NCBI GenBank assembly: GCA_015075305.1
Contig: JABTUS010000007.1
Span: forward strand, 186,001-250,000
Direction of reading: 5' to 3'
DNA length: 64,000 nucleotides
From: Opitutaceae bacterium
GTDB lineage: Bacteria; Verrucomicrobiota; Verrucomicrobiia; Opitutales; Opitutaceae
Shown piece after piece: positions 50,008 through 63,595 of the stretch. The notes beneath the pieces were generated by a model that did no database searches, was not told where the DNA came from, and saw only the letters and a program-made list of their open reading frames with translations. A program made the translations under genes and the position numbers. Each line of letters opens with the position of its first letter. Within the stretch, counting starts at the first letter, position 1.

Positions 50008-52197
50008 TCAGGGTGCCGCTGCTGCCACCTTGAAGTCGCGCAGGCTGCGCGTCGGCGGTGCGTCGGGATGGACGAGGGCGGCCTCGAGGATGTAGTCGCC
50101 GGTAGCGGACGGTGCCGCAAAGGCAAAGCTGAAGCGGCGGTCGCCGTAGGAGTCGATGGTGCAGGGCTGGGTCTGCTCGGAGACCACTTCCGCGCCGCGC
50201 AGGACGCGCAGTCGCAGACCGCCTGTCCAGTCAGTCGGAAGATCGTTGATGACGATGACAGGCATCTCTCGCTTCTCGCCGGACGAGAGTTTGTCGGCCC
50301 AGAAATCCAACATGAGTCCAACCGGTGCGAAGGCCTCTTTCACGAATTCGGCAAAGTGCGGTTCAAAACGCAGGGAAGGCACATCGATCCAGTCGTCGCT
50401 GGTGGCACCGCCCTCGGGCGTGGGTTTGGATCCATCGCGTGAATAGCCCAGACTGCAAAAGTGCATGACTCCCGCGGCCTGGCGGTGACATCTCCAGAAT
50501 TCGGTGAGTGCGGCTACATAACGCGCATGGAGACGGCGGCGCTGCTCGACCGTGGAGCCGGGACCGAGCAGACTGGCATAGACGCGACCTGTGAGGGCGG
50601 TGGGATCGCCTTCGCGATTCAGCCAGAGCCAGTCGTATTCATTGATGATGATGGGTTCGTTTTTCCAGCGCTGCTCGGGAAGGATTTTCGGATGGACCGA
50701 GGTGGTCGCGAGTTCGGACAAAAAGAAAGGTTCGCCGGTTCCCTTTCCTCCGAGGTTCAGCAAACGGCTGAACAGGTACGGATGCGATTCGACCGGGTCG
50801 GTGGGCCGTCCGGGCGGCGACCAGCCGTTGTCCCAGGGGCGGTCCGAGAGATCGAGGTGGCGCACGGCGTCGCGCGCCTTGCCGGTCTCCGGGGTCACGC
50901 TTTCGTTCTGTCCGTCCCAGATGACGACGCAGGGGTGGTTCCAGCGTTCGCGCATCCAGGCGGTGTACTCCGAGATGATCTTCTCCGCCACGGGGTTTTC
51001 GGGCGGTCTCCTCGATCCTCGGGTGGTGCGCAGCAGCCAGATGGGAAATTCGTCCTGGATGAGGATGCCCTCCTCGTCGGCGATGTCGTACCAGAACTCC
51101 GGCGGAAACCCGATGCAGTAGCGCAGCGAGTTCCAGTTCATCGCCTTCATCTGTTGGTGCAACCTGCGCACCCAGGCGGCGTCCCAGGGCAGTTCGCCGC
51201 GCGCCGCATCCTCCGAGAAACGCTCGATGGTGATGTTGCTGCCGCGCAGAAAATACGGCCGCCCGTTCAGAAGCGGGCGTTTTGTGGCCGGATCAAAGCT
51301 GAAACTGCGCAAACCGAAACGCACGCGCGCGGCGTCAGCACCAGTTGCCAGCCGCAGCTCGTAGAGGAAGGGGTCCTCCGGCGACCAGAGCCGGGGCTCC
51401 GCAATCGGGAGAACAAAATCGACGACCTTCTCCTCCCGCGCGGCGAGTCGCACGGGTGTGGCCGCACTGCCGGCAGGGGCGCGGGACTTGTCGGCCACGA
51501 CTTCTGTTTGCAGAGTGAACTCCACGGGCTGCGCGCCGGCCACGACCTCGGCGACGATGCGCACTGATCCGGCCACGGGGTCGGGCACGGTCTGGACATT
51601 GCGCAGGAACGGCGCGCTGGACAGGATGAGTTCAACCTGGTCATTGATGCCGGGAATGAACAGGTATTTCTCGAAATCCCAGCCCGTGGGTTGGTCGAAC
51701 GGCAACGATTCGCGATTGGCGCCGAGCCGGATCAGCACCTCGTTGTCGCCCCTGCGAAGATACGGTTTGGCGTCGAACTCGACCGGCGTGAAGCATGGCA
51801 GATGTTCGCCGACCCGCTTTCCGTTGAGCCAGACCTCGGTCCCGTAACGCGCCTTGTGCAGTTTGAGCAGGGCGATCGCCGGGATCGGTTGATCAACGCG
51901 AAAGCTGCGCCGATACCAGAACGCCTGGCGTTGGGCGCTGACGCTGCCCACCTCGGTGAAAGCAGGCTGGGCGAGATCGACGAGACCGGGCACGCGCACA
52001 GTGCGGGTGAACACGGCGGGCGGCGCGTCCATGCCGCCCTGCTCAATCTGCCAGGTGCCGTCGAGCGAAAGGGACTGGCGCGGTGCGATCGGTTTCAGCG
52101 CCGAGGCCTGCGCCAGCGGCGCACCAGCCGCGAGGCTTAGGACAAGCGTGAGCGCGGGCAGAGCAAGCGTGTGAAGGGACGAGATCAAGTCTGACAC
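50008..52197 (-). CDS. Glycoside hydrolase family 2 enzyme (secreted)
   Basis: The 729-residue protein starts at a GTG (MSDLISSLHTLALPALTLVL signal peptide); no ATG lies near. It has an N-terminal jelly roll (QSLSLDGTWQIEQGG, FWYRRSFRVDQ, YGTEVWLNGKRVGEHL), an Ig-like domain and a TIM barrel with acid/base Glu in HPCVVIWDGQNES and a likely nucleophile in PIIINEYDWLWLNREG. The 'vIWdGqNE' form is nearer to beta-mannosidase-like GH2 branches than to beta-galactosidases, but specificity is open. It ends the operon of hexose-phosphate enzymes, which supports release of a hexose such as mannose. Confidence 0.85.
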   Translation of the reverse strand: MSDLISSLHTLALPALTLVLSLAAGAPLAQASALKPIAPRQSLSLDGTWQIEQGGMDAPPAVFTRTVRVPGLVDLAQPAFTEVGSVSAQRQAFWYRRSFRVDQPIPAIALLKLHKARYGTEVWLNGKRVGEHLPCFTPVEFDAKPYLRRGDNEVLIRLGANRESLPFDQPTGWDFEKYLFIPGINDQVELILSSAPFLRNVQTVPDPVAGSVRIVAEVVAGAQPVEFTLQTEVVADKSRAPAGSAATPVRLAAREEKVVDFVLPIAEPRLWSPEDPFLYELRLATGADAARVRFGLRSFSFDPATKRPLLNGRPYFLRGSNITIERFSEDAARGELPWDAAWVRRLHQQMKAMNWNSLRYCIGFPPEFWYDIADEEGILIQDEFPIWLLRTTRGSRRPPENPVAEKIISEYTAWMRERWNHPCVVIWDGQNESVTPETGKARDAVRHLDLSDRPWDNGWSPPGRPTDPVESHPYLFSRLLNLGGKGTGEPFFLSELATTSVHPKILPEQRWKNEPIIINEYDWLWLNREGDPTALTGRVYASLLGPGSTVEQRRRLHARYVAALTEFWRCHRQAAGVMHFCSLGYSRDGSKPTPEGGATSDDWIDVPSLRFEPHFAEFVKEAFAPVGLMLDFWADKLSSGEKREMPVIVINDLPTDWTGGLRLRVLRGAEVVSEQTQPCTIDSYGDRRFSFAFAAPSATGDYILEAALVHPDAPPTRSLRDFKVAAAAP

Positions 52198-52258
52198 GGC
52201 GTGGAAGGGAAGAGTCGGAGGATGTGGTCTATGGTGTCTGCGAGGCGCATCGGCCGAA

Positions 52259-52657
52259 CTATTCGCCGTGCGCCGCTCGTTTGAAGTCGTCTTCATAGCG
52301 GGTGATGTCGGCCTGCTGCCAGTTGCCGAAGGCGACTTCGAGCACCCGCACGGGGCGGGTGCCGGCATGGCAGCTGAGGCGGTGCCTTTCCTGTGCGGGA
52401 ATCCAGATCTCGTCGCCCGCGCGGCATTCGCGGATGGCGTCGCCCACCTGGACAACGGCGCCGTCGTCGAGCACGATCCACAATTCCGCGCGCCCCGTGT
52501 GGGACTGCAGGCTCAGGCGCTGGCCCGGAAGCACGGTCATGAGACTCACCGTGCAGTCGCGATTGTGCGCGTATTGTTTGAACGAACCCCACGGGCGCTC
52601 GACAATCTCAACCGGAGGCTTTTGGGCGGGGATGGGTTTGGTGATGTAGCTGGTCAT
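52259..52657 (-). CDS. Cupin, ManC C-terminal-like (type II mannose-6-phosphate isomerase domain)
   Basis: The 132-residue protein is a stand-alone form of the C-terminal isomerase domain of bifunctional PMI/GMP enzymes. It shows VERPWGSFKQYAHNRDCTVS, LPGQRLSLQSHTGRAELWIV (metal ligands Q, H, E), AGDEIWIPAQERHRLSC and the C-terminal signature QQADITRYEDDFKR. If active, it converts mannose-6-P and fructose-6-P, duplicating the class I enzyme encoded two genes upstream. It lies 61 bp upstream of the GH2 gene and appears to belong to the same operon. Confidence 0.8.
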   Translation of the reverse strand: MTSYITKPIPAQKPPVEIVERPWGSFKQYAHNRDCTVSLMTVLPGQRLSLQSHTGRAELWIVLDDGAVVQVGDAIRECRAGDEIWIPAQERHRLSCHAGTRPVRVLEVAFGNWQQADITRYEDDFKRAAHGE

Positions 52658-52826
52658 GTTTGTGCGTGAAAACTCGGACCGACGCGCGTGCGAGCGCCTG
52701 CCGGCCCGATTCCTTCACCTCAGCCTCATTGCGGATGGGTCTGTCGCTGACTGGCGCGGCATGGAGTCCGGCGAAGGAGAGACGGACCAGGCTGAGGCTT
52801 GAAAGGATTGGACGGCGGATTGTCAT
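52608..52826 (-). pseudogene. Possible N-terminal fragment of a secreted protein
   Basis: A 72-codon frame starts at an ATG that overlaps the stop of the glucose-6-phosphate isomerase gene (ATGA). Its first 30 residues look like a signal peptide (MTIRRPILSSLSLVRLSFAG LHAAP), but the rest has no recognisable fold and overlaps the start of the next cupin gene by 50 bp. It may be the remnant of a deleted extracellular enzyme, or chance coding in a 165-bp gap. Confidence 0.3.
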
Positions 52827-53428
52827 GACGGGTCTCTGCGTTGGTGTTCGCTGCGCTGGCGCATCGCAGGTCCGTTGGGCCCGGCCACGACAATGCAGCG
52901 AAAGTTCTTCTGCGCGATGGTACCGTAGTCGTGACCCGCGCGCGCGGGATAGACACCCAGGTAGGTGAGTGGCACGGTGCCGGTGTTGATCGTGCGATGG
53001 GCGGTGAAGCCCGGCACATAGACGGCTTGATTTGGACGAAGGGGCGCCAGACGGCTTTCGCCGGTGGATTCGTCTTCGAGCAGCATCATCCCCTCACCGG
53101 TGAGACCGAAATAGAATTCCGCGGCCGGTCGCCACGCGTGCAGGTGGCCCTTGGTCAGGTAGTACTCGTCGCCGATTTTGCCCGGCATGAGGCATCCGAT
53201 TCCGTAGTGCAGGTCGCCTTCGCCCGAGGCGGGTTCGACACTGGCGACGCGATAGAGCAGTGGGTTGCCCTTTGCGAGTGCAGCCTCATACGCGGCGGTG
53301 TCCGCGAAGCAGCCGCGCAGGTCCGCGAGGTAACGCTCGACAGGTTTGACACCATCGAGTTCGCCGGTGGCTGGATTGTAGCGCGACAACAGGCGGTTCG
53401 CGTCGAGCATGGTGGATTGAGGGATCAT
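52823..53428 (-). CDS. Cupin-type glucose-6-phosphate isomerase
   Basis: The 201-residue protein belongs to the cupin GPI family known first from Archaea. Metal-binding residues appear in YYLTKGHLHAWRPAAEFYFG (HxH...E) and in FTAHRTINTG (second His); DLHYGIGCLMPGKIGDEYY precedes them. It interconverts fructose-6-P and glucose-6-P. Its start overlaps the stop of the class I mannose-6-phosphate isomerase gene (ATGA), so the two are made together and carry flux from mannose-6-P to glucose-6-P. Confidence 0.9.
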   Translation of the reverse strand: MIPQSTMLDANRLLSRYNPATGELDGVKPVERYLADLRGCFADTAAYEAALAKGNPLLYRVASVEPASGEGDLHYGIGCLMPGKIGDEYYLTKGHLHAWRPAAEFYFGLTGEGMMLLEDESTGESRLAPLRPNQAVYVPGFTAHRTINTGTVPLTYLGVYPARAGHDYGTIAQKNFRCIVVAGPNGPAMRQRSEHQRRDPS

Positions 53429-55179
53429 GTGCGCACAAAGGCCTTCAGGGTTGCGCATTCGGTTCCGACTGCCGGACCATGCGGCCGGATCGTGTAGGCT
53501 CCGACAGCGGCGGGAACGATGAACGTCTCCGCGTAGTGGACGACGAATGGCTGAAAGGCGCCGGTTGGACTTTCGACAATCGCCTCCTCGCCGTGCACGA
53601 GGTTGATCACGTTCACGCCGCCATGCGTGTCGTGCGACACGGCTTTCGTGAACCAGTGGCGGCGGGTTTCGATGAACTCGCGCTCGTGCAGGCCGGTGCG
53701 TTCCTCGCGCCAGCCGTCTCCGCTGCCGATGGGGGTGATGGCATTGACCAGATGTTTTTTTGCCCATGAGGCCGTGCGGTCCCATTGGATGTTTGCCGCG
53801 CCGTGGGCGAGATGGATCGGGCGCGGTTTGCCGTCGAGGCCGAGGCGGGTCCAGTCCCAGAGTTTGAACGTGAAGATGTAGGGCGTGGCGCTGATTTCGA
53901 GCACCATGGTGCCCGCCGCCGAGCAGTGAACGGTGCCTGCGGGGATGAGGAAGTGGTCATGGGCTTTCGCCGGCAGGCGGCTGGCGTGGCGATCGGCGTC
54001 GAATGGCGCGCCGCCCGCCTGCGCCGTCGCGAGATCGCGCAGCATCGCCGCGGAGTCCACACCTTCCTTGAGCCCCAGATACACGGTGCCAGCGGGCTCG
54101 GCGTGCAGCAGGTAGTAACTCTCGTCCTGCGTGTAGTGCATGCCGAAATTCCGCTGGATGTATTCGGTCAGTGGATGCACCTGGAGCGACAGATTGCCGC
54201 CGCCCACGGTGTCGAGCAGGTCGAAGCGGATCGGAAATTCATCGCCGAAACGCGCGTGAACCGCTTCGCCGAGCAGTGCGCGCGGCTGGTCGAACACGAC
54301 GTTGATGGACGGCAGCTCCATCCGCACTCCGCCGAGATCGAGCAGCAGGCTGTTCTCCTCGGGCACGCAGTCAAAACACCAGCCGTAGTTCCTGGCGTTG
54401 CGATCGAGATCGCAGGTCTCCTTCATCCACTGTCCGCCCCAGGGCGCGGGATCGAAGAACGGCACGACGCGGAAAGGACGGGTGACCGCGTGGCGCAGGC
54501 CGCGCCGGACGGATTCGCCGTCGGCGAGCTTCGGCGTGCCGCGATCGTGCGTGTCGAGAACGAAGTCCCACTTTGCAATCAGGGGCCGCTTCCAGCGGTC
54601 GGCGACGCGCCAGTCGACGAAGAATGCGCGCTTGTACTTGAGGTTGGCGGCCAGGGTGTGGTTGGCGACGCCGAGGTTGGCGGACTCGTTGCGACGGAAG
54701 CGCAACTGAGCCTCCCAGCGCGCGAGGTCGGCGTACACGAGCACATCGCCGTCGGCGACGAGCCGGGCGCCGCAGCCGACCACCAGCGCGAGTCCCGCGG
54801 GGAGCGCGGCGACCCGGGCGCGCAACCGATCCAGCTTCGTCGGATCGAAGAACTGCGGCAGCGTCAGGCTGGTGATGTATCCAAAAACTGGATCATCGCC
54901 GCCAAGAAAGGGAGCGACCAGGGATTCGATCCGGTCGGGCTGCAAAAGGGCTTCGCGCGAATCGACGACCAGCGCCGGGGCAAGGCGGGAGGTCAGCTCG
55001 GTGCGCACCTGCACCTCGTCCACCCCGGGATAGCATTCCACCACCAGGACGCGGCGGCCGCCAGGCGATGGAGATGCCCTGTCCCGCAGCCTTGCCGCGA
55101 TCGCGTTCCAGCCGGTCGCGCATGCACTGGCGCCCGGCACGGGCAGATGAGGAAACTTGTCGTAGTTGGATTTTCTCAT
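53425..55179 (-). CDS. Mannose-6-phosphate isomerase, class I, with degenerate kinase-like N-terminal domain
   Basis: The 584-residue protein has two parts. Residues 1-about 215 resemble the uridine-kinase-like P-loop domain attached to some class I PMIs, but the P-loop is degenerate (RVLVVECYPGVDEVQVRTEL, no GKS/T). The C-terminal 350 residues are a type I PMI: FFDPAPWGGQWMKETCDLDR, zinc ligands in GGNLSLQVHPLTEYIQRNFG and DESYYLLHAEPAGTVYLGL, then FLIPAGTVHCSAAGTMVLEI. It makes fructose-6-P from mannose-6-P. The gene is flanked by the ROK kinase (33 bp) and the isomerase gene (ATGA overlap). Confidence 0.85.
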   Translation of the reverse strand: MRKSNYDKFPHLPVPGASACATGWNAIAARLRDRASPSPGGRRVLVVECYPGVDEVQVRTELTSRLAPALVVDSREALLQPDRIESLVAPFLGGDDPVFGYITSLTLPQFFDPTKLDRLRARVAALPAGLALVVGCGARLVADGDVLVYADLARWEAQLRFRRNESANLGVANHTLAANLKYKRAFFVDWRVADRWKRPLIAKWDFVLDTHDRGTPKLADGESVRRGLRHAVTRPFRVVPFFDPAPWGGQWMKETCDLDRNARNYGWCFDCVPEENSLLLDLGGVRMELPSINVVFDQPRALLGEAVHARFGDEFPIRFDLLDTVGGGNLSLQVHPLTEYIQRNFGMHYTQDESYYLLHAEPAGTVYLGLKEGVDSAAMLRDLATAQAGGAPFDADRHASRLPAKAHDHFLIPAGTVHCSAAGTMVLEISATPYIFTFKLWDWTRLGLDGKPRPIHLAHGAANIQWDRTASWAKKHLVNAITPIGSGDGWREERTGLHEREFIETRRHWFTKAVSHDTHGGVNVINLVHGEEAIVESPTGAFQPFVVHYAETFIVPAAVGAYTIRPHGPAVGTECATLKAFVRT

Positions 55180-55212: not shown

Positions 55213-56154
55213 TCAGCGGGCCGCGGATTCCTTCAGCAGCCACTCGCCGGCGACAAGGGCGGCGTTGTCGCCCAGGGAGGAGGGCACGATGCGGACCTTT
55301 CCCCAGGGAGTGTGGGCATGCCGGTTCACATAATCGGCGATCGCGGGCAGAATCTGATCTCCGCTCGACATGATTCCCCCTCCGAGAATGAGCATCTCGG
55401 GGTCGTAGGCGTGTATGAGATTCACCGCGAGCGAGCTCCAGACAAGCAGGCTGTGATCGCGCAGCGCGACGGCGCACGCGTCGCCGGCGGTGGCCTGCGC
55501 GAAGACATTGGCGTAGTCGAGCGGGAGCGAGCGCAGGGAGCTCCGTTCCCAGTCGGGCGAGGACTCCGCGAGTTGGCGGAGAAAAGCCGTCGATGCCTCG
55601 GCCTCGGCGCAGCCTAGATTGCCGCAGGTGCAGGGCCGCCCCCCGTAGCGCACCGTCAGATGCCCGCCGAGCACGCCGGCCTGGCCGTGTTTGCCGCGCA
55701 GCACACGGCCCTCGATGATTGCGCACACGCCGAGCCCCGTGCCGAGGGTGATCATGACAAGGTTGTCGCAGCCGCGACCCGCCCCGGCGCGCCATTCGCC
55801 GATCAGCGCCATGCGGGCGTCGTTCTCGATGACGAGCGGCAGACCCAGCTCGGTCCGCACCCACGCGCGCATGTCGATGCCCAGCGAGTCGGCGTACTTT
55901 CCATAGACCACGAGGATGCGCCCCGTTTCCTTGTCTATGAGACTGGGAAACGCCACCGACGCACCGGCACAGTCGGAGAGCTTTAGGTTGAGCCCGTGCA
56001 GCAGGCGGAGCCAGGCGTCCTTCAAGACGGGCAGGCGCAGTGCGAGACCGTGCTGGGAGTGGGCGGGCTCGACGGTGTGCGCGAGGACCCGGCCGTCGCG
56101 CACGACGCCGATCTTCAGGCGCGTGCCACCGAGATCACAAGCGAGGTATGTCAT
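55213..56154 (-). CDS. ROK-family sugar kinase
   Basis: The 313-residue protein begins with the ATP-binding ACDLGGTRLKIGVVRDG and has no N-terminal helix-turn-helix, so it is a kinase rather than a repressor. The substrate site ENDARMALIGEW, the phosphate-binding VMITLGTGLGVCAIIEGRVL and the zinc motif RPCTCGNLGCAEAEAS are intact. Its start overlaps the end of the sugar transporter gene by 20 bp. With mannose-6-phosphate isomerase next door, mannose or another hexose is the likely substrate. Confidence 0.9.
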   Translation of the reverse strand: MTYLACDLGGTRLKIGVVRDGRVLAHTVEPAHSQHGLALRLPVLKDAWLRLLHGLNLKLSDCAGASVAFPSLIDKETGRILVVYGKYADSLGIDMRAWVRTELGLPLVIENDARMALIGEWRAGAGRGCDNLVMITLGTGLGVCAIIEGRVLRGKHGQAGVLGGHLTVRYGGRPCTCGNLGCAEAEASTAFLRQLAESSPDWERSSLRSLPLDYANVFAQATAGDACAVALRDHSLLVWSSLAVNLIHAYDPEMLILGGGIMSSGDQILPAIADYVNRHAHTPWGKVRIVPSSLGDNAALVAGEWLLKESAAR

Positions 56155-57547
56155 GACGAGGGTTCATTTGCTTCGGGGACGGCGCCGGCGTCCGCCACAT
56201 GCGGCCGATTTCCTCCAGGGTGCGGCCCTTGGTTTCAGGAATGAGGGTCAGCACGAAAAGGAAGGAAACGAGGCTGACCGTGGCATAGAGCCAGAAGGTC
56301 ATGGCGGGGCCGACTGCGGGACTGTCGTTGAGGATCGGAAAAGTCTGGGCCACGATGTAGCAGGCCACCCAGATGACGAAGGTGGCGACGGACATGGCGC
56401 GTCCGCGGATTTCATTGGGGAAAATCTCCGAGCAGAAGATCCACGTGATCGGGCCCATTCCCATCGCGAACGCGGCGATGAAAAGCACCACGCCTCCGAG
56501 CAGCAGGGGGCCCTGCTGACCGGAATGGAAGAGCCAGCCCACCAGCAGCAAGGAAATGGACTGAACGGCCGTGCCGATGAGCAGCAGCGGGCGACGTCCG
56601 AGCCGGTCGACAAACGCGATGGCGACAAACGTGAAGATGAGGTTGATCAATCCGACCCAGACCGAGGAGGTGAAGGCGGCGTTCTTCACGGCGCCTGCGG
56701 TCTCGAAGATTTTGGTCGAATAGTACATGATCGCGTTGATGCCGCAGAACTGCTGGAAGAGCGCGAGCAGTGCGGCCAGCGCGAGCGGGCGGCGAAAGTT
56801 CCGGGAAAAAAGTGCGGAAAAGGGTGCCTCGGCGCTGGGGGCGGCTGACTGTATCGCGGTCATTTCCCGCTCCGCGTGCGCAGGACCGTCCACTTTGGAC
56901 AGAATGGACCGGGCCTCGTCGGTGCGCCCGCGACGTGCCAGCCAGCGGGGGCTCTCCGGAACGGTGAAGAGCAGGCCGATGAAGGCGATGGCCGGCACGA
57001 CCTCCATGCCGAGCATCCAGCGCCACCCGAAGGCGGTGTTCCACTCCTCGTCTCCCATGCCCTGGATGACGTGGTTGACGAACAGTGTGAGGAAAATGCC
57101 CGTGACGATGCCGAGCTGGAAGAGGGAGCCGAGGCGGCCGCGCCATCTTTCCGGAGCAATCTCGGCGATGTAGACGGGGCAGATCATGGATGATGCGCCG
57201 ATGCCGAGACCGCTGATGATGCGGGCCGCGAGGAACTCCTCGAACGTGCGCGGAATGGCTGAGAGCAGGCCCGACACGGCGTAGAGGATGGCGCAGAGGA
57301 AGAGCATCTTCCGGCGTCCGAACCGGTCGCTGAGAAAACCGGCGAACATGGCGCCGGGTATGCAGCCGAGGATGGCGCTCGCGCCGGCGAGTCCCTCCTC
57401 GGCGGGCGTCAATCCGAGGTGCGCGGTCAGGTACGAGTTGGCGCCGTTGATGACGGCCGTGTCGTAGCCGAAGAGAAATCCGCCGATGGCGGTCACACCC
57501 GTGGCGAAGAGGACGAAGCGGTGGGAATGTGGGGACGGGGCGGTCAT
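56135..57547 (-). CDS. Sugar-proton symporter, MFS sugar porter family
   Basis: The 470-residue protein has 12 membrane helices and the sugar-porter motifs: GGFLFGYDTAVINGA in helix 1, SDRFGRRKMLFLCAILYAVS, the central PESPRWLARRGRTDEARSIL, FQQFCGINAIMYYSTKIF in helix 7, VDRLGRRPLLLIGT and the C-terminal PETKGRTLEEIGR. It resembles XylE/GalP-type importers. It follows the GntR gene by 22 bp and overlaps the ROK kinase gene by 20 bp, so import and phosphorylation are coupled. Confidence 0.92.
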   Translation of the reverse strand: MTAPSPHSHRFVLFATGVTAIGGFLFGYDTAVINGANSYLTAHLGLTPAEEGLAGASAILGCIPGAMFAGFLSDRFGRRKMLFLCAILYAVSGLLSAIPRTFEEFLAARIISGLGIGASSMICPVYIAEIAPERWRGRLGSLFQLGIVTGIFLTLFVNHVIQGMGDEEWNTAFGWRWMLGMEVVPAIAFIGLLFTVPESPRWLARRGRTDEARSILSKVDGPAHAEREMTAIQSAAPSAEAPFSALFSRNFRRPLALAALLALFQQFCGINAIMYYSTKIFETAGAVKNAAFTSSVWVGLINLIFTFVAIAFVDRLGRRPLLLIGTAVQSISLLLVGWLFHSGQQGPLLLGGVVLFIAAFAMGMGPITWIFCSEIFPNEIRGRAMSVATFVIWVACYIVAQTFPILNDSPAVGPAMTFWLYATVSLVSFLFVLTLIPETKGRTLEEIGRMWRTPAPSPKQMNPRHDIPRL

Positions 57548-57569: not shown

Positions 57570-58352
57570 TCAACTGGGGCGCAGCGTCAGGCTGAGCTCG
57601 AAGCGATCGCCGCGGTAGTGGACAATTGAATACTCGATCGGCTTACGGCGGGTGTCGAAGACGGTGCGTGTTCTCAGCAGCAGCGGAGCTCCGGGTGCCA
57701 CCCGGAGCGCGCGGGCGAGCCTTTGATCGGCGGCGACGGCGGAAAGGGCGTCCTCGGATTGATCTGCGATGACTCCGCAGCGGCTTCTAATCAATTCGTA
57801 GAGGGGCTGGCTGAAGTCGTCACCGACCTTCAGCTTCAGGCGCGGGTGAAGGTAGGAGCGGAAGCGCACGACGGGGGTGGCATCCCAGCCGCGAATGCGA
57901 TCGAGGCAGATCACTTCGGCTCCCGGTTTGAGATGAAGCCGGCGGGCGACCTCCTCCGGGGCGGTCAGCGAGCGGGTTGACACCGTGTAGGTTTCAACGC
58001 GCACGCCCTTTGACTCCATTTCGCGGGTGAAACTCTGCCATGCGCCGACGCCGGAGTGCACCTTGGGCTCCAGCACGCGCGTGCCCACGCCGGCCCTGCG
58101 GTCGAGCCTTCCCTCGCTCACCAGGCGGGCGATCGCGGCCCGCAGCGTGTTGCGGCTGACGCCCATGGCGTTGGCCAGTGAGACTTCGTCGGGCAGCAGC
58201 GTGCCGGGGGCCTGGGCGGGCTGGGCCAGGAGAGCACGCAGGGACTGCTCAGCCTGGGCATGAAGCGGCAGGGAGTTGCCCGGATCCAGTCGCAGTCCTT
58301 TCAGAATTCCGGATGGGGCTGTCGATGGAGTGGGGGAAATCGAGCGCATCAT
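57570..58352 (-). CDS. GntR-family regulator with UTRA effector domain
   Basis: The 260-residue protein has a winged helix (about residues 20-95: LPLHAQAEQSLRALLAQPAQ, LANAMGVSRNTLRAAIARLV SEGRLDRRAGVGTRV) and a UTRA domain (REMESKGVRVETYTVSTRSL, LHLKPGAEVICLDRIRGWDA, YELIRSRCGVIADQSEDALS). UTRA domains bind sugar phosphates. It is the first gene of the hexose operon. Two tandem ATGs (58352, 58349) are possible starts; both lie just 3-6 bp beyond an operator-like palindrome, with no Shine-Dalgarno sequence, so the transcript may be nearly leaderless and autoregulated. Confidence 0.88.
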   Translation of the reverse strand: MMRSISPTPSTAPSGILKGLRLDPGNSLPLHAQAEQSLRALLAQPAQAPGTLLPDEVSLANAMGVSRNTLRAAIARLVSEGRLDRRAGVGTRVLEPKVHSGVGAWQSFTREMESKGVRVETYTVSTRSLTAPEEVARRLHLKPGAEVICLDRIRGWDATPVVRFRSYLHPRLKLKVGDDFSQPLYELIRSRCGVIADQSEDALSAVAADQRLARALRVAPGAPLLLRTRTVFDTRRKPIEYSIVHYRGDRFELSLTLRPS

Positions 58353-58354
58353 AC

Positions 58355-58392
58355 TTTGTTCAAACAAACTGATCGAATGATGGCGCTGTCAA
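58355..58392 (-). promoter_or_regulatory. Operator/promoter of the gntR-led hexose operon
   Basis: On the minus strand TTGACA (58387-58392) is followed after 18 bp by TTTGTTTGAACAAA (58355-58368), a near-palindrome with half-sites TTTGTT/AACAAA. The palindrome covers the expected -10/start region and ends 2 bp before the first possible start codon of the regulator gene. A second copy is at 60889-60925. Confidence 0.6.
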
Positions 58393-58546
58393 TCCCGCAG
58401 TTGGGCGGTGCCCCGGGCGTCGCCATCGGGTTCCCGATTGTCGCTGCCGTCATCTGTTGTTGCGTGTCCTGGCGGGACACGAGAGGGGGAATGCGGAAAT
58501 TTCAGGAACGCCATGGGATCCGGGCGCAGTGGATTCAGGACGCGGA

Positions 58547-60763
58547 TCAGCCTCTGTGTTTGCCGACGTACAGTGGTACATGGGTTTGCTCCGAATACTG
58601 GCCCCCTTCGCGGAACGGACCGGCACCCTGAAAGAGAATGCGTTTTGGGAGCGAACTTTTCAACAGCACCCTTTCCCGACCATTGATCTTCTCACTGGCG
58701 AATGGCGCCTGGTGAAGGAAATTGGATTTTCCGTTGGAGGCGCATGAGATCGAGACTGATGATTCGTCATTGATGACGAAGGGATTGTCATTTCCGCCGA
58801 AATTGACAACGCCTCCAAGCACTTCGGTCGATCCACCGTTCTTCGTGAGAAACCCGACTCCGCGCCCTTCGGTCTTGAATCCCAGTACCCAAAGCTGCGA
58901 ACCGTCGTTGATCACCTCGGGGTTTGCACGCTCGGGATTCAACTGCCGCGCCCAGACCGACTGCCCCTTGAACTGGTAGCAGTTGGGGTTGGGCGGGAAC
59001 TGGTCGGTGCAACAGATGTTTTCGATGAACACTTTTCCACCGCTCACCGTGTTGAGGTACATCGCCCCCGTTTGTGCATGAAGGTCGCTGAGAACCAGGG
59101 TGCGCCTTGAAGCGTGCTCGACAAGGTACTGCTCTCCCCTGAACTCCTCGAAGGCGAAAAGATCCTCGATGAGGAGCGGCGTTGATGATTCGCCGTCGAC
59201 ACGAAAGGTGCCGCGGTTCTTCGCTTGCTTCAGATTCTCACCCGACACGAGATCGCAGAACATGAAATTGATCCGCTCGACTGTCGCCGGAACGCGAATG
59301 GCTCCGTTGATGAGGTATCGACCCGGTTGAAAGTAGATGACTGATTTCCCCGAATCCAGCGCCGACTGGATCGCCTGGGTGCAGTCCGTTGTCCCGTCTC
59401 CTTTCGCTCCAAATTCGTTGACGCTTACCCATCGGTTCATGTCCTGCTCCCAGGGGATTTCAGGCGTCTCCTCAATGCGCAGATTGAGGGACCGCTTTTC
59501 CTGCTCTGAACGCAGTGTCTGGACGCCATGAGAGGAGTGCTCTTCGATGATCGGGCCGCTGAGGAGCGTGCTGTCGAACCTTCCGATTGCGGCCGGGTAT
59601 CCGGATGTCCTCACGTTTCTGGCAAAGAGCACGCCGTTGATGTGCTCGATTGCAGGCACCGCCCCGCCTGTTTCCGTTCGGTCCGTCGGATCGGACTCGA
59701 ACGCCAATTCGCTGTCGACGAGGACGACGTGGGCGGGCGATCCCGCGATTGTGAGGGCAGGCACCTGGTTCCTGCTTCGCAATCCACGGATCGAAACGGG
59801 GGTTTCGTCGACAAGAAATCCCGCAATCTTCTGGTGGCTGAGTGTGATGTGCTCAAAGACCGTGTACATTCGGTATGGCAGTGCCTGGATGCCATAGTCG
59901 AAGCCCTCCACGGTGACATGTTTGAAGTAGCAGCCTGAAAGGTTGTGGCGGTCGCATAGGAGTCCGACGGCTCCGACCTTGCCGGGATCCCCGGATCGGA
60001 TGGTGACGTGTCGGACGGCGGCCATGTTGTTGCCGAAAAAGCGGAGGCCCGACGCCCCGGGATTGCCGATGCCGGTGTCAATCGAGATGTTCTCAAAGAG
60101 ATTCGCCATTGAAACGTTCGATGTCGACTTCCTCATGAAACTGAAGACCGGCTTGTTGGAGCCTCTTTCGAAGCCGGGGCATGCATCCTTCAGTCTGATC
60201 ACGGCACCCCGCTCGCTCTGGCCGCGAATGATGATCTGCCGGTTCAGCTCCCCACCAGAGGTGTTGTGCAGATCGGCAAACGTGTAGCACAGGGTGTCGC
60301 TCACCAGGTAGGTCCCGTTCGGGAAGTAGAGAATTCTCGACTGCTCCGGCCGTGCGGGAAATACGACGCGAATGCGTCCGTTTGCCTTGAGTGTTTCGAC
60401 GCTGATGGGATGATGGAAATCCTGACGGGGGTCATCGGCCATTTCCTTTTCCAGCGCTTTTTCCGCTTCGAGCGTGGGACGGAGAATGTCATCGAGCGCG
60501 CGAATCAACGCTTCGGTGCAGTCCTTCCTTCCCTGATTGTCGCAGTGATAGGGTGCCTTGGTGACATCAATCACCGCAAGTGCGGCGGCGGGATAGACGC
60601 AGTTCTCCCCGCGATGCTCCGCTGGCGTTGCGCCACGCTCCGCCCCCTTTGTGCTTCCGGACTTGCGGCTGCCATCTGTTTCCTTCGAGGAGGCCGTTGA
60701 GGGAATCAGGGCGCCTGCCAGCGAAGCAATGCCGGTGGTCGTGATGAAGGTTCTTCTTTTCAT
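58547..60763 (-). CDS. Pectate-lyase-fold (right-handed beta-helix) secreted protein
   Basis: The 738-residue protein begins with a signal that resembles a Tat signal (MKRRTFITTTGIASLAGALI). Two Pectate_lyase_3-type modules are visible: DCTEALIRALDDIL followed by RILYFPNGTYLVSDTLCYTF (first), and SVNEFGAKGDGTTDCTQAIQ SALDSGKSVIYFQPGRYLI (second). Many short beta-helix coils lie between. The fold is used by polysaccharide lyases and GH28-like hydrolases; no catalytic residues can be assigned with confidence. It shares an operator-like site with the downstream GntR gene, which suggests it acts on the glycan that feeds that operon. The start MKRRTF was preferred to an upstream frame of 54 codons. 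Confidence 0.8.
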   Translation of the reverse strand: MKRRTFITTTGIASLAGALIPSTASSKETDGSRKSGSTKGAERGATPAEHRGENCVYPAAALAVIDVTKAPYHCDNQGRKDCTEALIRALDDILRPTLEAEKALEKEMADDPRQDFHHPISVETLKANGRIRVVFPARPEQSRILYFPNGTYLVSDTLCYTFADLHNTSGGELNRQIIIRGQSERGAVIRLKDACPGFERGSNKPVFSFMRKSTSNVSMANLFENISIDTGIGNPGASGLRFFGNNMAAVRHVTIRSGDPGKVGAVGLLCDRHNLSGCYFKHVTVEGFDYGIQALPYRMYTVFEHITLSHQKIAGFLVDETPVSIRGLRSRNQVPALTIAGSPAHVVLVDSELAFESDPTDRTETGGAVPAIEHINGVLFARNVRTSGYPAAIGRFDSTLLSGPIIEEHSSHGVQTLRSEQEKRSLNLRIEETPEIPWEQDMNRWVSVNEFGAKGDGTTDCTQAIQSALDSGKSVIYFQPGRYLINGAIRVPATVERINFMFCDLVSGENLKQAKNRGTFRVDGESSTPLLIEDLFAFEEFRGEQYLVEHASRRTLVLSDLHAQTGAMYLNTVSGGKVFIENICCTDQFPPNPNCYQFKGQSVWARQLNPERANPEVINDGSQLWVLGFKTEGRGVGFLTKNGGSTEVLGGVVNFGGNDNPFVINDESSVSISCASNGKSNFLHQAPFASEKINGRERVLLKSSLPKRILFQGAGPFREGGQYSEQTHVPLYVGKHRG

Positions 60764-60888
60764 GACTGATGAGGATGATTGGGGGTGATGCTGCGCGTGA
60801 TTGTCCGCTGCGGACGCTGCCAAACCCAGCCATCTGTTGATGAGCAGAGCCAGGGCAATGGTCTTGTTGAGCGCGGGGTGCTTTGGTA

Positions 60889-60925
60889 TTTGTTCAAACA
60901 ATCGATCAAATAGAATCGATGTCAA
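60889..60925 (-). promoter_or_regulatory. Operator/promoter upstream of the pectate-lyase-like gene
   Basis: On the minus strand TTGACA (60920-60925) is followed after 17 bp by ATTGTTTGAACAAA (60889-60902), almost identical in sequence and spacing to 58355-58392. It lies about 125 bp upstream of the MKRRTF start, in the 278-bp gap before the GH2 gene. Confidence 0.6.
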
Positions 60926-61041: not shown

Positions 61042-63558
61042 TCAGTTGTTTTCCGGCCTGATTCGGATGCGGGCGCCTGCGGGCTGGAGGCCTTCCGCGG
61101 AGACGGTCAGTTCGGCGGAGCCCGCCTCGTCAGTCGCCTGGCAGATGGCCAGGCACATGCCCATGAAAGCATTTCTTGCGGAGGATGGCGCGGGTGAATG
61201 ATCGAGCACGTCGCCGTTCCCGGTTCCCAGTAGCTTCAGGGGACCGCGGACCGAATAGGTGATGCGATTGTCCGCGGCGGGCACGAGCACGCCGTGTTCG
61301 TCAACGATGCGGACTGTCGCGTGCAGGGCGTCGCGATGATTCGCGCGCATGGTCGTGCGATCGATTTCGAGCGTGAGCCGTTTCGCGGGACCAGCCGTCT
61401 GCTGAATAGTTTCGGCCATCGCGCGGCCATTGCGATAGGCGACGGCCTTGAGCACGCCAGGCCGATAGGGCACGTTCCAGACGATCTGCCAGGCGAGCGT
61501 CATGGGCTGGCGTCCGAGGGAGCGGCCGTCCTGGAAGAGTTCCACCTCCTCGGCGTTGGAGTAGGCGACGACCGGAATCGTGACGCCTTCCTTGCCCGGA
61601 TGGGTCCAGTGCGGGAGCAGGTGGACCATTGGCTTCGTGGTCCAGAGGCTTTGATAGAGATAGTAATGGTCCTTGGGAAATCCCGCGAGATCGAGAATGC
61701 CCGCGGATGACGCGCGGCTGGGCCAGCTTGATTCGCCGAGGTAGTCGATGCCGGTCCAGCGAAACTCCCCCATCACATGGGGCAGGCTGGCGGTGAGCCG
61801 CCAGGAGTCGCGCGCATTCAGGTAGACGTAGTTGTTGTCGTAGGAGGAACTCAGTGTCGGGCGTTCCGTGCCGAGGTCCCGGACCTCTGTGAAGACCTCC
61901 TGCGGTGCGAGATCGGGGATTGGCGGGTAGCCCGGGATCTTTTCCCGCATGCGGGTGGTGGTGCGATAAACTCCCCGGGTCTGGCTTGTGTGCGGATGCT
62001 CGGTGCCGATGAAGAGTCGTTTGGGAAATTTCTGGCGATCCTCGCGGTAGAGGAAAACGGATCCGCCGCCGTCATTGTAGCCGGCGACGTCGAAGACATC
62101 CGCGAAACCCGATTGGTTGGCCTGGTCCATGTAGTTGATGCCGCAGGTCACCGGCCGCGTGGAGTCGATCTCGTGCACGGCGTCGCGAAGCCGGCGCGCG
62201 TCGGCGACGCCCTCCGGTTTGCCGAGTTCGCGCACTTCGTTGCCCACGCTCCACATGAAGACGCACGGGTGGTTGCGATCGCGGAGAATGGCGTCCTGGA
62301 CGTCGCGCACGGCCCATTCGGCGAACAGCTGGTTGTAGCCGCCGGCGGCCATGTCCTTCTTGGCGATGCGCCATTCGTCGAGGGTTTCACCCATGACCAG
62401 GATGCCCATTTCATCGCAGAGGTCGTAGAACTCGCTCGCCATCGGGGCGTGGCCGGTGCGGATCGCGTTGCAGCCGGCCTCCTGCAGGAGGCGCAGTCTC
62501 CGCCGCAGGACGTCCTCGGGGACGGCCGCGCCGACGGGCCCGGCGTCGTGATGCAGGCACACGCCCTTCAGCTTGGTGTTGCGACCGTTCAGGAAGAATC
62601 CCTGCCCGGTGGTGAATTCGAGGCGGCGGATTCCGAAACGGGTTTCAACCCGGTCGACGAGTTTTCCACCGGCGCGCACGGTGGTTTCGAGCAGGTAGAG
62701 TGCCGGTGATTCGGGTGACCAGAGTTCGGGGGCGTGGAGTTTGATCGTCTGGTTGAAGGCCAGCGAACCCTCTGCGCCGATGGTCTGTGAAGTCGGGGTG
62801 AATGTGGCGATGCGGCGGCCGTTCCTCAGGACGGCGTGTTCGACAGTCACGCCGATTGGCGCACGGTTCTGATGTTTGACCGAAGTTTGCACGCGGATTT
62901 CCGCGAGTTCGGAGGTCGCCTCGGGTGTTGTGACAAAGATGCCGTTGGGTTCCACGTGGGTGGCATTTGTGGCCGTGAGCCAGACGTGCCGGTAGATGCC
63001 GCAGCCGGTGTACCAGCGGGAACTGGGCTGGACGGAATTGTCGACCCGCACGGCGAGCACATTGGGATTGCCGTCGCTGCGGAGAAACGGGGTGAGATCG
63101 TGGCTGAAACTGACGTAGCCGTAGGGGCGGCGGCCGAGGGGGTGTCCGTTGATCCAGACGTCGGCATTCATGTAGACGCCGTCGAAGGTGATGCGCACGT
63201 GTTTCCCGGCGAATGCGGGGGACAGGTTGAAGGACTTTCGATACCAGCCGACACCGCCCGGGTAGTAGCCCATGCGACCGATGCCGGGATGTGTTTTTGC
63301 GATGGGGCCGCGAATGGCCCAGTCGTGCGGGAGAAGCACCGGCTCCCAAGAGGCATCGGCAAAGGCCGGCGCTTCGGCGCCTGCGGGGTCGGAGAGGATG
63401 AATCTCCAGCCGTCGTCCCAGTTCAGGTGAATCCGGGGTGCAGTTGCCGATTCTGCGCGAACCGAGGCAGGAAGAGCGAACAGACAGATGGCCGCGAGGG
63501 CGAGACAGGCCCGTCTGTGGCAGGAGCGGGGGAGGAAGGGGAGAGCAAGTGATGTCAT
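61042..63558 (-). CDS. Glycoside hydrolase family 2 enzyme (beta-galactosidase-like, secreted)
   Basis: The 838-residue protein has a signal peptide (to about residue 36) and the full GH2 architecture: jelly roll (WDDGWRFILSDPAGAEAPAF, MGYYPGGVGWYRKSFNLSPA, VWINGHPLGRRPYGYVSF), Ig-like domain, TIM barrel with acid/base Glu in CVFMWSVGNEVRELG (about residue 440) and nucleophile Glu in PHVMGEFRWTGIDYLGES, then C-terminal Ig-like domains (GVLKAVAYRNGRAMAE). This layout is common in beta-galactosidases of Bacteroidetes and Verrucomicrobia. An ATG three codons earlier (63567) is also possible. It is 278 bp upstream of the pectate-lyase-like gene on the same strand. Confidence 0.9.
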   Translation of the reverse strand: MTSLALPFLPRSCHRRACLALAAICLFALPASVRAESATAPRIHLNWDDGWRFILSDPAGAEAPAFADASWEPVLLPHDWAIRGPIAKTHPGIGRMGYYPGGVGWYRKSFNLSPAFAGKHVRITFDGVYMNADVWINGHPLGRRPYGYVSFSHDLTPFLRSDGNPNVLAVRVDNSVQPSSRWYTGCGIYRHVWLTATNATHVEPNGIFVTTPEATSELAEIRVQTSVKHQNRAPIGVTVEHAVLRNGRRIATFTPTSQTIGAEGSLAFNQTIKLHAPELWSPESPALYLLETTVRAGGKLVDRVETRFGIRRLEFTTGQGFFLNGRNTKLKGVCLHHDAGPVGAAVPEDVLRRRLRLLQEAGCNAIRTGHAPMASEFYDLCDEMGILVMGETLDEWRIAKKDMAAGGYNQLFAEWAVRDVQDAILRDRNHPCVFMWSVGNEVRELGKPEGVADARRLRDAVHEIDSTRPVTCGINYMDQANQSGFADVFDVAGYNDGGGSVFLYREDRQKFPKRLFIGTEHPHTSQTRGVYRTTTRMREKIPGYPPIPDLAPQEVFTEVRDLGTERPTLSSSYDNNYVYLNARDSWRLTASLPHVMGEFRWTGIDYLGESSWPSRASSAGILDLAGFPKDHYYLYQSLWTTKPMVHLLPHWTHPGKEGVTIPVVAYSNAEEVELFQDGRSLGRQPMTLAWQIVWNVPYRPGVLKAVAYRNGRAMAETIQQTAGPAKRLTLEIDRTTMRANHRDALHATVRIVDEHGVLVPAADNRITYSVRGPLKLLGTGNGDVLDHSPAPSSARNAFMGMCLAICQATDEAGSAELTVSAEGLQPAGARIRIRPENN

Positions 63559-63595
63559 GTGGTGCAACGGCCTGGTTCGCGAAGTGGTCCTGGGG

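What the first reader, a model, noticed from the sequence alone, without database searches (positions are those of the whole stretch)
58355..60925. Twin operator-promoter units linking a pectate-lyase-like gene to the GntR hexose operon
TTGACA followed by 17-18 bp and then TTGTTTGAACAAA occurs twice on the minus strand, at 58355-58392 before gntR and 60889-60925 before the pectate-lyase-like gene, with extra similarity in the spacer (ATTCGATC versus TTTGATCG). The palindrome covers the presumed -10/start region in both. I did not find a third copy in the window. This defines a probable regulator-target pair directly from sequence. At gntR the operator ends 2 bp before the start codon with no ribosome-binding site, so the message may be leaderless.
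Basis: seen in the sequence. Interest (0 to 1): 0.6.

Follow-up and report, generated by a model that had tools for sequence, protein, structure and literature searches.

The report
Two operators of a mannose-type repressor
Two matching promoter-operator units in a bacterium of the Opitutaceae very probably let one sugar-sensing repressor control both its own mannose-use operon and a neighbouring secreted carbohydrate-active enzyme; it is a clear example of a known kind of gene switch, not a new kind.

Summary
On the minus strand TTGACA stands 19 and 18 nt before TTGTTTGAACAAA at gntR and at the pectate-lyase-like gene (PEL). In 252 family genomes the combined motif occurs 7 times, in 5 genomes, reversed control 0; all 7 lie before gntR, PEL or the sugar transporter. 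The regulator is the only UTRA protein found in the genome. The palindrome is a HutC-type GT-N4-AC site; a strict or relaxed version lies upstream of gntR or its operon in 17 of 17 orthologous loci. Gene content points to a mannose regulator like Bacteroides ManR. Corrections: lack of a ribosome-binding site is no sign of leaderlessness, since 0 of 36 window ORFs have one; but 35-40 nt from TTGACA to the start codon in gntR of the window and six close loci does suggest a leader of about 0-5 nt. PEL is nearer to GH55-type double beta-helix enzymes than to pectate lyases, and its operator is seen in one genome only; in two relatives the transporter is the second target. New member of a known kind.

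The parts
58355..58368 (-). Operator O1, TTTGTTTGAACAAA, ending 2 bp before the gntR start codon
58387..58392 (-). TTGACA, presumed -35 box of the gntR operon
   Evidence: 6 of 6 TTGACA in 11 of 15 units examined; rate at random places 0.2%
57570..58352 (-). gntR: GntR/HutC-subfamily regulator with UTRA domain, 260 aa (P0001)
60889..60902 (-). Operator O2, ATTGTTTGAACAAA, 125 nt before the likely PEL start codon
60920..60925 (-). TTGACA, presumed -35 box of the PEL transcript
58547..60763 (-). PEL: probably secreted (KRRTFIT, twin-arginine-like, motif recalled) protein with two PF12708 stretches; nearest solved relatives by sequence are GH55 beta-1,3-glucanases
56135..57547 (-). MFS sugar-porter-family transporter; has its own TTGACA-operator unit in two relatives (G005, G007)
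55213..56154 (-). ROK-family sugar kinase
53425..55179 (-). 584-aa protein with a mannose-6-phosphate-isomerase-like part (residues 234-460)
   Evidence: 1qwr, E 6.8e-11; no Pfam or NCBIfam hit
52823..53341 (-). Cupin-type glucose-6-phosphate isomerase (PF06560); start approximate
52259..52657 (-). Small cupin, mannose-6-phosphate isomerase C-terminal type (PF01050)
50008..52455 (-). GH2-family glycosidase at the far end of the gene row
61042..63567 (-). GH2 glycosidase (GalA/GalB-like, below their cut-offs) upstream of PEL; in G007 and L031 it lies just before an operator

Best explanation
The two palindromes are operators of the adjacent GntR/HutC (UTRA) regulator, a mannose-type repressor. 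Without its ligand (most likely a hexose phosphate such as mannose-6-phosphate) the dimer sits on TTGTTTGAACAA, just downstream of the TTGACA -35 box and over the start-site region, and blocks RNA polymerase at its own operon (gntR-MFS-ROK-isomerases-GH2) and at PEL. With ligand both open together: a secreted glycan-acting enzyme plus uptake and conversion to fructose-6-phosphate. At gntR the message has a leader of about 0-5 nt, so the operator touches or overlaps the start codon. Shown here by sequence: the sites, their specificity, their conservation with the regulator, the gene content. Inferred: binding, repression, ligand, operon extent, transcription starts.
For: Combined motif: 7 places in 5 of 252 family genomes, control 0, before gntR (4), MFS (2) or PEL (1). 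UTRA protein and combined motif agree in 10 of 11 genomes checked (4 both, 6 neither, 1 motif only); G184 was put into that set because it had the motif, the others are the ten genomes of the genus in the first list. It is the only UTRA protein found in the genome. GT-N4-AC is the spacing of most HutC-subfamily sites (PMC4494728, passages). Operator upstream in 17 of 17 orthologous loci: strict WTGTTYRAACAW starting within 35 nt before the gene in 12; strict, 169 nt before the first gene of the presumed operon, in 1 (L041); relaxed WTGTNYRNACAW in 4 (L042, L045, L046, L047). In 15 Bacteroidales gntR loci 20 relaxed sites against 0.86 expected, maximum 4 of 100 shuffles. In G007 the transporter lies on another contig than gntR and carries the same kind of TTGACA-operator unit. 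Extra sites lie before a GH38 alpha-mannosidase gene (L121) and at the start of a GH92 gene (L044) in relatives.
Against: No expression, binding or start-site data. No consensus -10 box was found. The 12-mer without TTGACA is not specific: it occurs in 14 of 19 genomes (own and relatives), also in some with no UTRA protein, and in the whole genomes of L041, L043 and L044 counts are near the control (15/15, 9/7, 18/12). G005 has the unit before its transporter but no UTRA protein in a 91%-complete genome. 5 of the 15 Bacteroidales loci have no relaxed site within 1.5 kb (L135, L136, L137, L143, L145). The PEL operator is seen in one genome only; in G005 PEL lies upstream of the operator, not downstream.
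Confidence: 0.82

Rival explanations
1. O1 is a working operator, but O2 is a leftover: PEL came to lie behind an operator that earlier served another gene (the transporter), and PEL regulation by it is accidental or weak.
For: The PEL spacer matches the G005 and G007 transporter spacers at 11 and 12 of 18 positions but its own gntR spacer at 4 (counted from the operator side without gaps; a 1-nt shift lowers the last figure). In G007, L031 and this window an operator follows the GH2 gene directly. PEL has no match at 1e-8 in any of the 17 named loci.
Against: The PEL spacer matches the L035 gntR spacer nearly as well, 10 of 18, so the kinship to the transporter unit is weak evidence. TTGACA and the 12-bp palindrome are intact. 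A captured promoter would by itself place PEL under the regulator.
Confidence: 0.3
2. The palindrome is a promoter element (an unusual -10 box) read by the sigma factor, not an operator.
For: It starts 16-19 nt after the TTGACA-like box in the window and L031-L036.
Against: A promoter element should be common; with TTGACA it is found only 7 times in 252 genomes. Its distance to the TTGACA-like box is 21-25 nt in L037-L040. The symmetric variant TTGTTCAAACAT, and the palindrome in Bacteroidota and a Planctomycetota genome, keep the symmetry.
Confidence: 0.05
3. Another transcription factor of the genome, not this GntR, owns the palindrome.
For: G005 keeps the unit without this regulator.
Against: Sites lie next to this regulator's gene or operon in 17 of 17 loci, and it is the only UTRA protein found in the genome. 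G005 is 91% complete, so the gene may be unassembled or recently lost.
Confidence: 0.08

Closest known systems
ManR (BT2103) regulon of Bacteroides thetaiotaomicron, GntR family, predicted (PMC3878776; passages seen)
   Same: GntR-family regulator of mannose uptake and conversion to fructose-6-phosphate, with extracellular glycosidases in the same regulon; here transporter, kinase, mannose-6-phosphate isomerase, and in relatives alpha-mannosidase genes with sites.
   Different: Orthology to BT2103 and identity with its published logo could not be tested (sequence and figure not held). In this window the extra target is a double beta-helix protein, not an alpha-mannosidase or a SusC/D system.
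HutC-subfamily regulators with solved structures, such as YvoA (4u0v) and DasR (4zs8); best match 2ra5, unnamed
   Same: GntR helix-turn-helix plus UTRA domain; palindromic operator with GT-N4-AC; sugar-phosphate-responsive repressors (ligand recalled).
   Different: Operator core TGTTYRAACA instead of the TGGTCTAGACCA type (recalled); different pathway; below the cut-off of every NCBIfam model listed.
acuR-acuI-dddL operon of Rhodobacter sphaeroides (PMC3017554; passages including the abstract)
   Same: Autoregulating repressor as first gene of a leaderless operon, with an inverted-repeat operator over the promoter.
   Different: AcuR is of the TetR family, responds to acrylate, and its 5' end was mapped; here leaderlessness is only inferred.
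GH55 beta-1,3-glucanases (PDB 5m5z, 3eqn), for PEL
   Same: Two PF12708-type stretches; best profile matches among solved structures.
   Different: Only stretches of about 50-185 residues align, some of them weakly; catalytic residues not tested.

Membership tests
GntR family, HutC subfamily | GntR helix-turn-helix followed by UTRA domain | tested here: met
   PF00392 E 1.6e-15 and PF07702 E 1.1e-30, both over the curated cut-off
GntR family, HutC subfamily | Palindromic site with GT and AC 4 nt apart | tested here: met
   TT-GT-TTGA-AC-AA; spacing stated in PMC4494728
ManR-type mannose regulon | Controls mannose uptake and conversion to fructose-6-phosphate | tested here: inconclusive
   By annotation it fits: sugar-porter MFS, ROK kinase, protein with a mannose-6-phosphate isomerase part (1qwr), cupin isomerases behind gntR, similar gene rows in relatives; sugar specificity not tested
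ManR-type mannose regulon | Includes extracellular mannosidases | tested here: inconclusive
   The combined motif has no such place in this genome; sites before GH38 in L121 and at the start of GH92 in L044 in relatives
ManR-type mannose regulon | Orthology to BT2103 | not tested
   BT2103 not available by name; 15 of 247 genomes of L044's order, its own included, carry a relative of the L044 protein at E <= 1e-20, the 14 others 48-59% identical
ManR-type mannose regulon | Same operator logo as published | not testable with these tools
   The logo is in a figure, which is not held
Leaderless transcript | 5' end within 8 nt of the start codon | not testable with these tools
   Needs 5'-end mapping; geometry only: 35-40 nt from the TTGACA-like box to the first start outside the operator in 7 of 7 close gntR genes
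Pectate lyase | Match to a polysaccharide-lyase family | tested here: not met
   Only the generic PF12708 reaches significance in Pfam; nothing in NCBIfam; a weaker match to one 'putative pectin lyase' structure (7chu) among others
GH55 glucanase | Two tandem beta-helix domains, GH55 catalytic residues | tested here: inconclusive
   Two PF12708 stretches and best profile hits to GH55; catalytic residues not tested; single-sequence fold unusable, pLDDT 38

The most novel reading that the evidence does not exclude
One mannose regulon, with regulator and operator kept recognisably alike across Verrucomicrobiota, Planctomycetota and Bacteroidota, in which the repressor's operator has merged with the start codon of its own leaderless message, and which in this lineage has captured a new double beta-helix enzyme by placing it behind an operator of the regulon. 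PEL would then be an enzyme for a mannose-containing glycan of unknown kind.
Probability: 0.25. Interest if true: 0.5.

Novelty: new member of a known kind. Interest (0 to 1): 0.36.

Why it matters
It gives a concrete, testable operator and target list for a sugar regulator in Opitutaceae, where my two searches for such work listed nothing on point, ties a poorly described, probably secreted beta-helix protein to mannose use, and offers a clean case for testing leaderless translation in bacteria whose genes seem to lack Shine-Dalgarno sequences. It is otherwise a normal bacterial switch.

Tried and rejected
Absence of a ribosome-binding site as evidence for leaderlessness: rejected, because 0 of 36 window ORFs have one. 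TATGAT at the gntR start as a -10 box: rejected, since it overlaps the start codon and the next ATG, GTG or TTG codon is residue 63. A start codon inside the operator (TTG 58367 here; TTG or ATG at the first base of the 12-mer in 8 of the 11 relatives' loci listed) is in frame; judged unlikely because in L031-L035 it lies only 22-24 nt after the first base of TTGACA, upstream of any start site that box could give; not excluded. Consensus promoter scan: nothing found. Fold of PEL from its single sequence: pLDDT 38, unusable, no fold search made. The two other WTGTTYRAACAW sites of the own genome: one inside a 672-aa ORF, one with no ORF over 100 codons within 300 bp; neither has TTGACA at the right distance. 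Strict sites fetched from six relatives' genomes (14 stretches): 7 of 14 lie inside an ORF of 120 codons or more by the script; one of these, L130, is the L038 gntR site itself, under an antisense ORF. Of the other 7: L120 stands before a sulfatase gene, L121 before a GH38 gene, L122 24 nt before the start of a glycosyltransferase ORF on the other strand, L126 before a transposase gene; L119, L123 and L128 gave no near glycan gene, not every neighbouring ORF being scanned. Paper searches for novelty; absence is limited to that library.

Full report
What is there. On the minus strand of the window two units read TTGACA - 19 nt - TTGTTTGAACAAA - GT - ATG (gntR, 58392 to 58350) and TTGACA - 18 nt - TTGTTTGAACAAA (PEL, 60925 to 60889). 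The gntR 14-mer is a perfect 6-2-6 palindrome; at PEL the inner 12 bases are.

More than chance. In the window, exact and near matches exceed shuffles (5 rows against mean 0.46, maximum 3 of 100). In the whole genome the loose pattern TTTGTTNNAACAAA with one mismatch has 4 places, 2 of them these, but its reversed control has 3; strict WTGTTYRAACAW has 4 places against 0. The 12-mer alone is not a reliable mark: it is found in 14 of 19 genomes (own and relatives), also in some without the regulator. The combined motif TTGACA-N13-20-TTGTTTGAACAA was sought in 252 genomes of the family: 7 places in 5 genomes, control 0. Four are before gntR (G000, G007, G008, G184; the first three by the gntR places, G184 because its letters equal the L035 unit and its UTRA match lies behind it), two before the MFS transporter gene (G005, G007) and one before PEL (G000).

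Which regulator. The gene behind O1 encodes a GntR helix-turn-helix plus UTRA protein, of the HutC subfamily, most of whose sites have GT and AC 4 nt apart (PMC4494728, passages); TTGTTTGAACAA fits. It is the only UTRA protein found in the 97.6%-complete genome. Of 11 genomes checked (G000-G009, and G184 added because it has the motif), 4 have a UTRA protein and the combined motif, 6 have neither, and G005 has the motif without the protein. G005 also lacks a close relative of the 584-aa isomerase-like protein (best match 34% over part). It is 91% complete, so loss and missing sequence cannot be told apart.

Conservation. A scan of species genomes gave 17 loci with relatives of the regulator (37-82% identity), titled Opitutaceae, Opitutia, Verrucomicrobia/Verrucomicrobiota, Planctomycetota or Bacteroidota genera, one just 'bacterium'. 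Strict WTGTTYRAACAW starts within 35 nt before the gene in 12 of 17 (L031-L040, L043, L044); in L041 it lies 169 nt before the first gene of the presumed operon, and again before the isomerase-like gene; in L042, L045, L046 and L047 only the relaxed form WTGTNYRNACAW is found. In 15 Bacteroidales loci (L044's own genome included) 20 relaxed sites were found against 0.86 expected, maximum 4 of 100 shuffles; 5 of the 15 loci had none. In L045-L047 the sites lie between gntR and the divergent isomerase-like gene. Over the whole genomes of L041, L043 and L044 the strict 12-mer is near its control, so sites away from gntR there mean little by themselves.

What it controls. Behind gntR come an MFS sugar porter, a ROK kinase, a 584-aa protein with a mannose-6-phosphate-isomerase part, a cupin glucose-6-phosphate isomerase, a small cupin of the mannose-6-phosphate isomerase type and a GH2; the row is largely kept in relatives, though some lack the transporter at this place and some loci end early. 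In relatives, sites lie 44 nt before a GH38 alpha-mannosidase gene (L121), at the start of a GH92 gene (L044), before a sulfatase gene (L120) and beside a glycosyltransferase ORF (L122). In L044 the longest GH92 ORF starts 14 nt before the site, so the true start is probably further on (inference). The best name is therefore a mannose-type regulator like the ManR predicted for Bacteroides (PMC3878776, passages). Membership in ManR as an ortholog was not tested.

How it most likely works. TTGACA with 6 of 6 matches lies 10-25 nt before the operator in 11 of 15 units examined: window gntR and PEL, L031-L035, L037, L038, and the G005 and G007 MFS units. Two more have 5 of 6 (L036, L039) and two 4 of 6 (L040, L042); each figure is the best of 16 places. 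The chance rate for 6 of 6 is 0.2% per unit (42 of 19,998 random places). L041 and L043-L047 were left out of this count, as other phyla. The gap to the 12-mer is 16-19 nt in the window, L031-L036 and the MFS units, and 21-25 nt in L037-L040. An operator just downstream of a -35 box implies repression by blocking polymerase; UTRA regulators usually let go on binding a small ligand (general knowledge of the family; ligand here inferred as mannose-6-phosphate or a related hexose phosphate). No -10 box of consensus type was found, so the promoter rests on the -35 box alone.

The start codon. In gntR the only ATG, GTG or TTG codons before residue 63 are the two ATGs at 58352 and 58349, apart from an in-frame TTG at 58367 inside the operator. 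From the first base of TTGACA (TTGACC in L036) to the first start codon outside the operator it is 40 nt in the window and 35, 35, 40, 40, 36 and 35 in L031-L036 (GTG in L036; L032 and L034 also have a later in-frame ATG), which puts a normal transcription start 0-5 nt before the codon. In L031, L032 and L035 the start codon follows the 12-mer directly (TTGTTTGAACAAATG). In L037-L040 the distance is 43, 54, 65 and 50 nt, so a short leader is likelier there. A comparable, experimentally mapped case is the leaderless acuR operon (PMC3017554).

The second target. PEL has no match at 1e-8 in the 17 named loci, which are 3.9-16.8 kb long. Among the 56 other genomes searched only G005 has a close homolog (82%), with distant ones (29-37%) in G016, G045 and G056. 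In G005 the order is GH2 - PEL - operator - MFS; in G007 GH2 - operator - MFS, on another contig than gntR; in L031 GH2 - operator - gntR - MFS; here GH2 - operator - PEL - operator - gntR - MFS. The PEL spacer matches the transporter spacers at 11-12 of 18, its own gntR spacer at 4 (ungapped) and the L035 gntR spacer at 10, so its ancestry stays open. A simple history is that PEL came in next to the operator that follows the GH2 gene, on opposite sides in the two genomes; this is inference. PEL has two PF12708 stretches and its best solved relatives by sequence are GH55 beta-1,3-glucanases; no lyase family was hit. The likely start is ATG 60763, with a twin-arginine-like signal (recalled motif); the longer ORF begins at a TTG at 60925, the first base of the -35 box.

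Verdict. Observation confirmed; interpretation largely right about the pair, wrong in its reason for leaderlessness, imprecise about the enzyme. It is a known kind of switch in a little-studied group. I have no RNA or binding data, so binding, repression, ligand and start sites are inferred.

Noticed in passing
window, 36 ORFs of 200 aa or more: No Shine-Dalgarno 5-mers upstream of starts (0 of 36; 6% of all ATGs), while TCCTCC-like pyrimidine runs lie within 12 nt of ATG in 17% against 2%; in related Opitutaceae loci only 5% against 2%. PMC10783764 lists some Verrucomicrobia as SD-scarce (passages).
   Followed up: partly
L073 (G005:C38): A relative keeps GH2 - PEL - operator - transporter but no UTRA protein was found in its assembly.
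   Followed up: partly
L043 7977-7988: In Chitinophaga rupis the stretch TATGTTTGAACAT contains TAnnTTTG, the Bacteroidota -7 box as I recall it, so the operator may cover the promoter core there.
   Followed up: no
L120 2496 and L121 2410: Operator-like sites before a sulfatase gene and a GH38 alpha-mannosidase gene in other Verrucomicrobiota that have the regulator.
   Followed up: partly
L033 7977 and L034 7977: The operator itself begins with an in-frame ATG (ATGTTTAAACAA), so operator and possible start codon overlap fully there.
   Followed up: no
   Followed up: no
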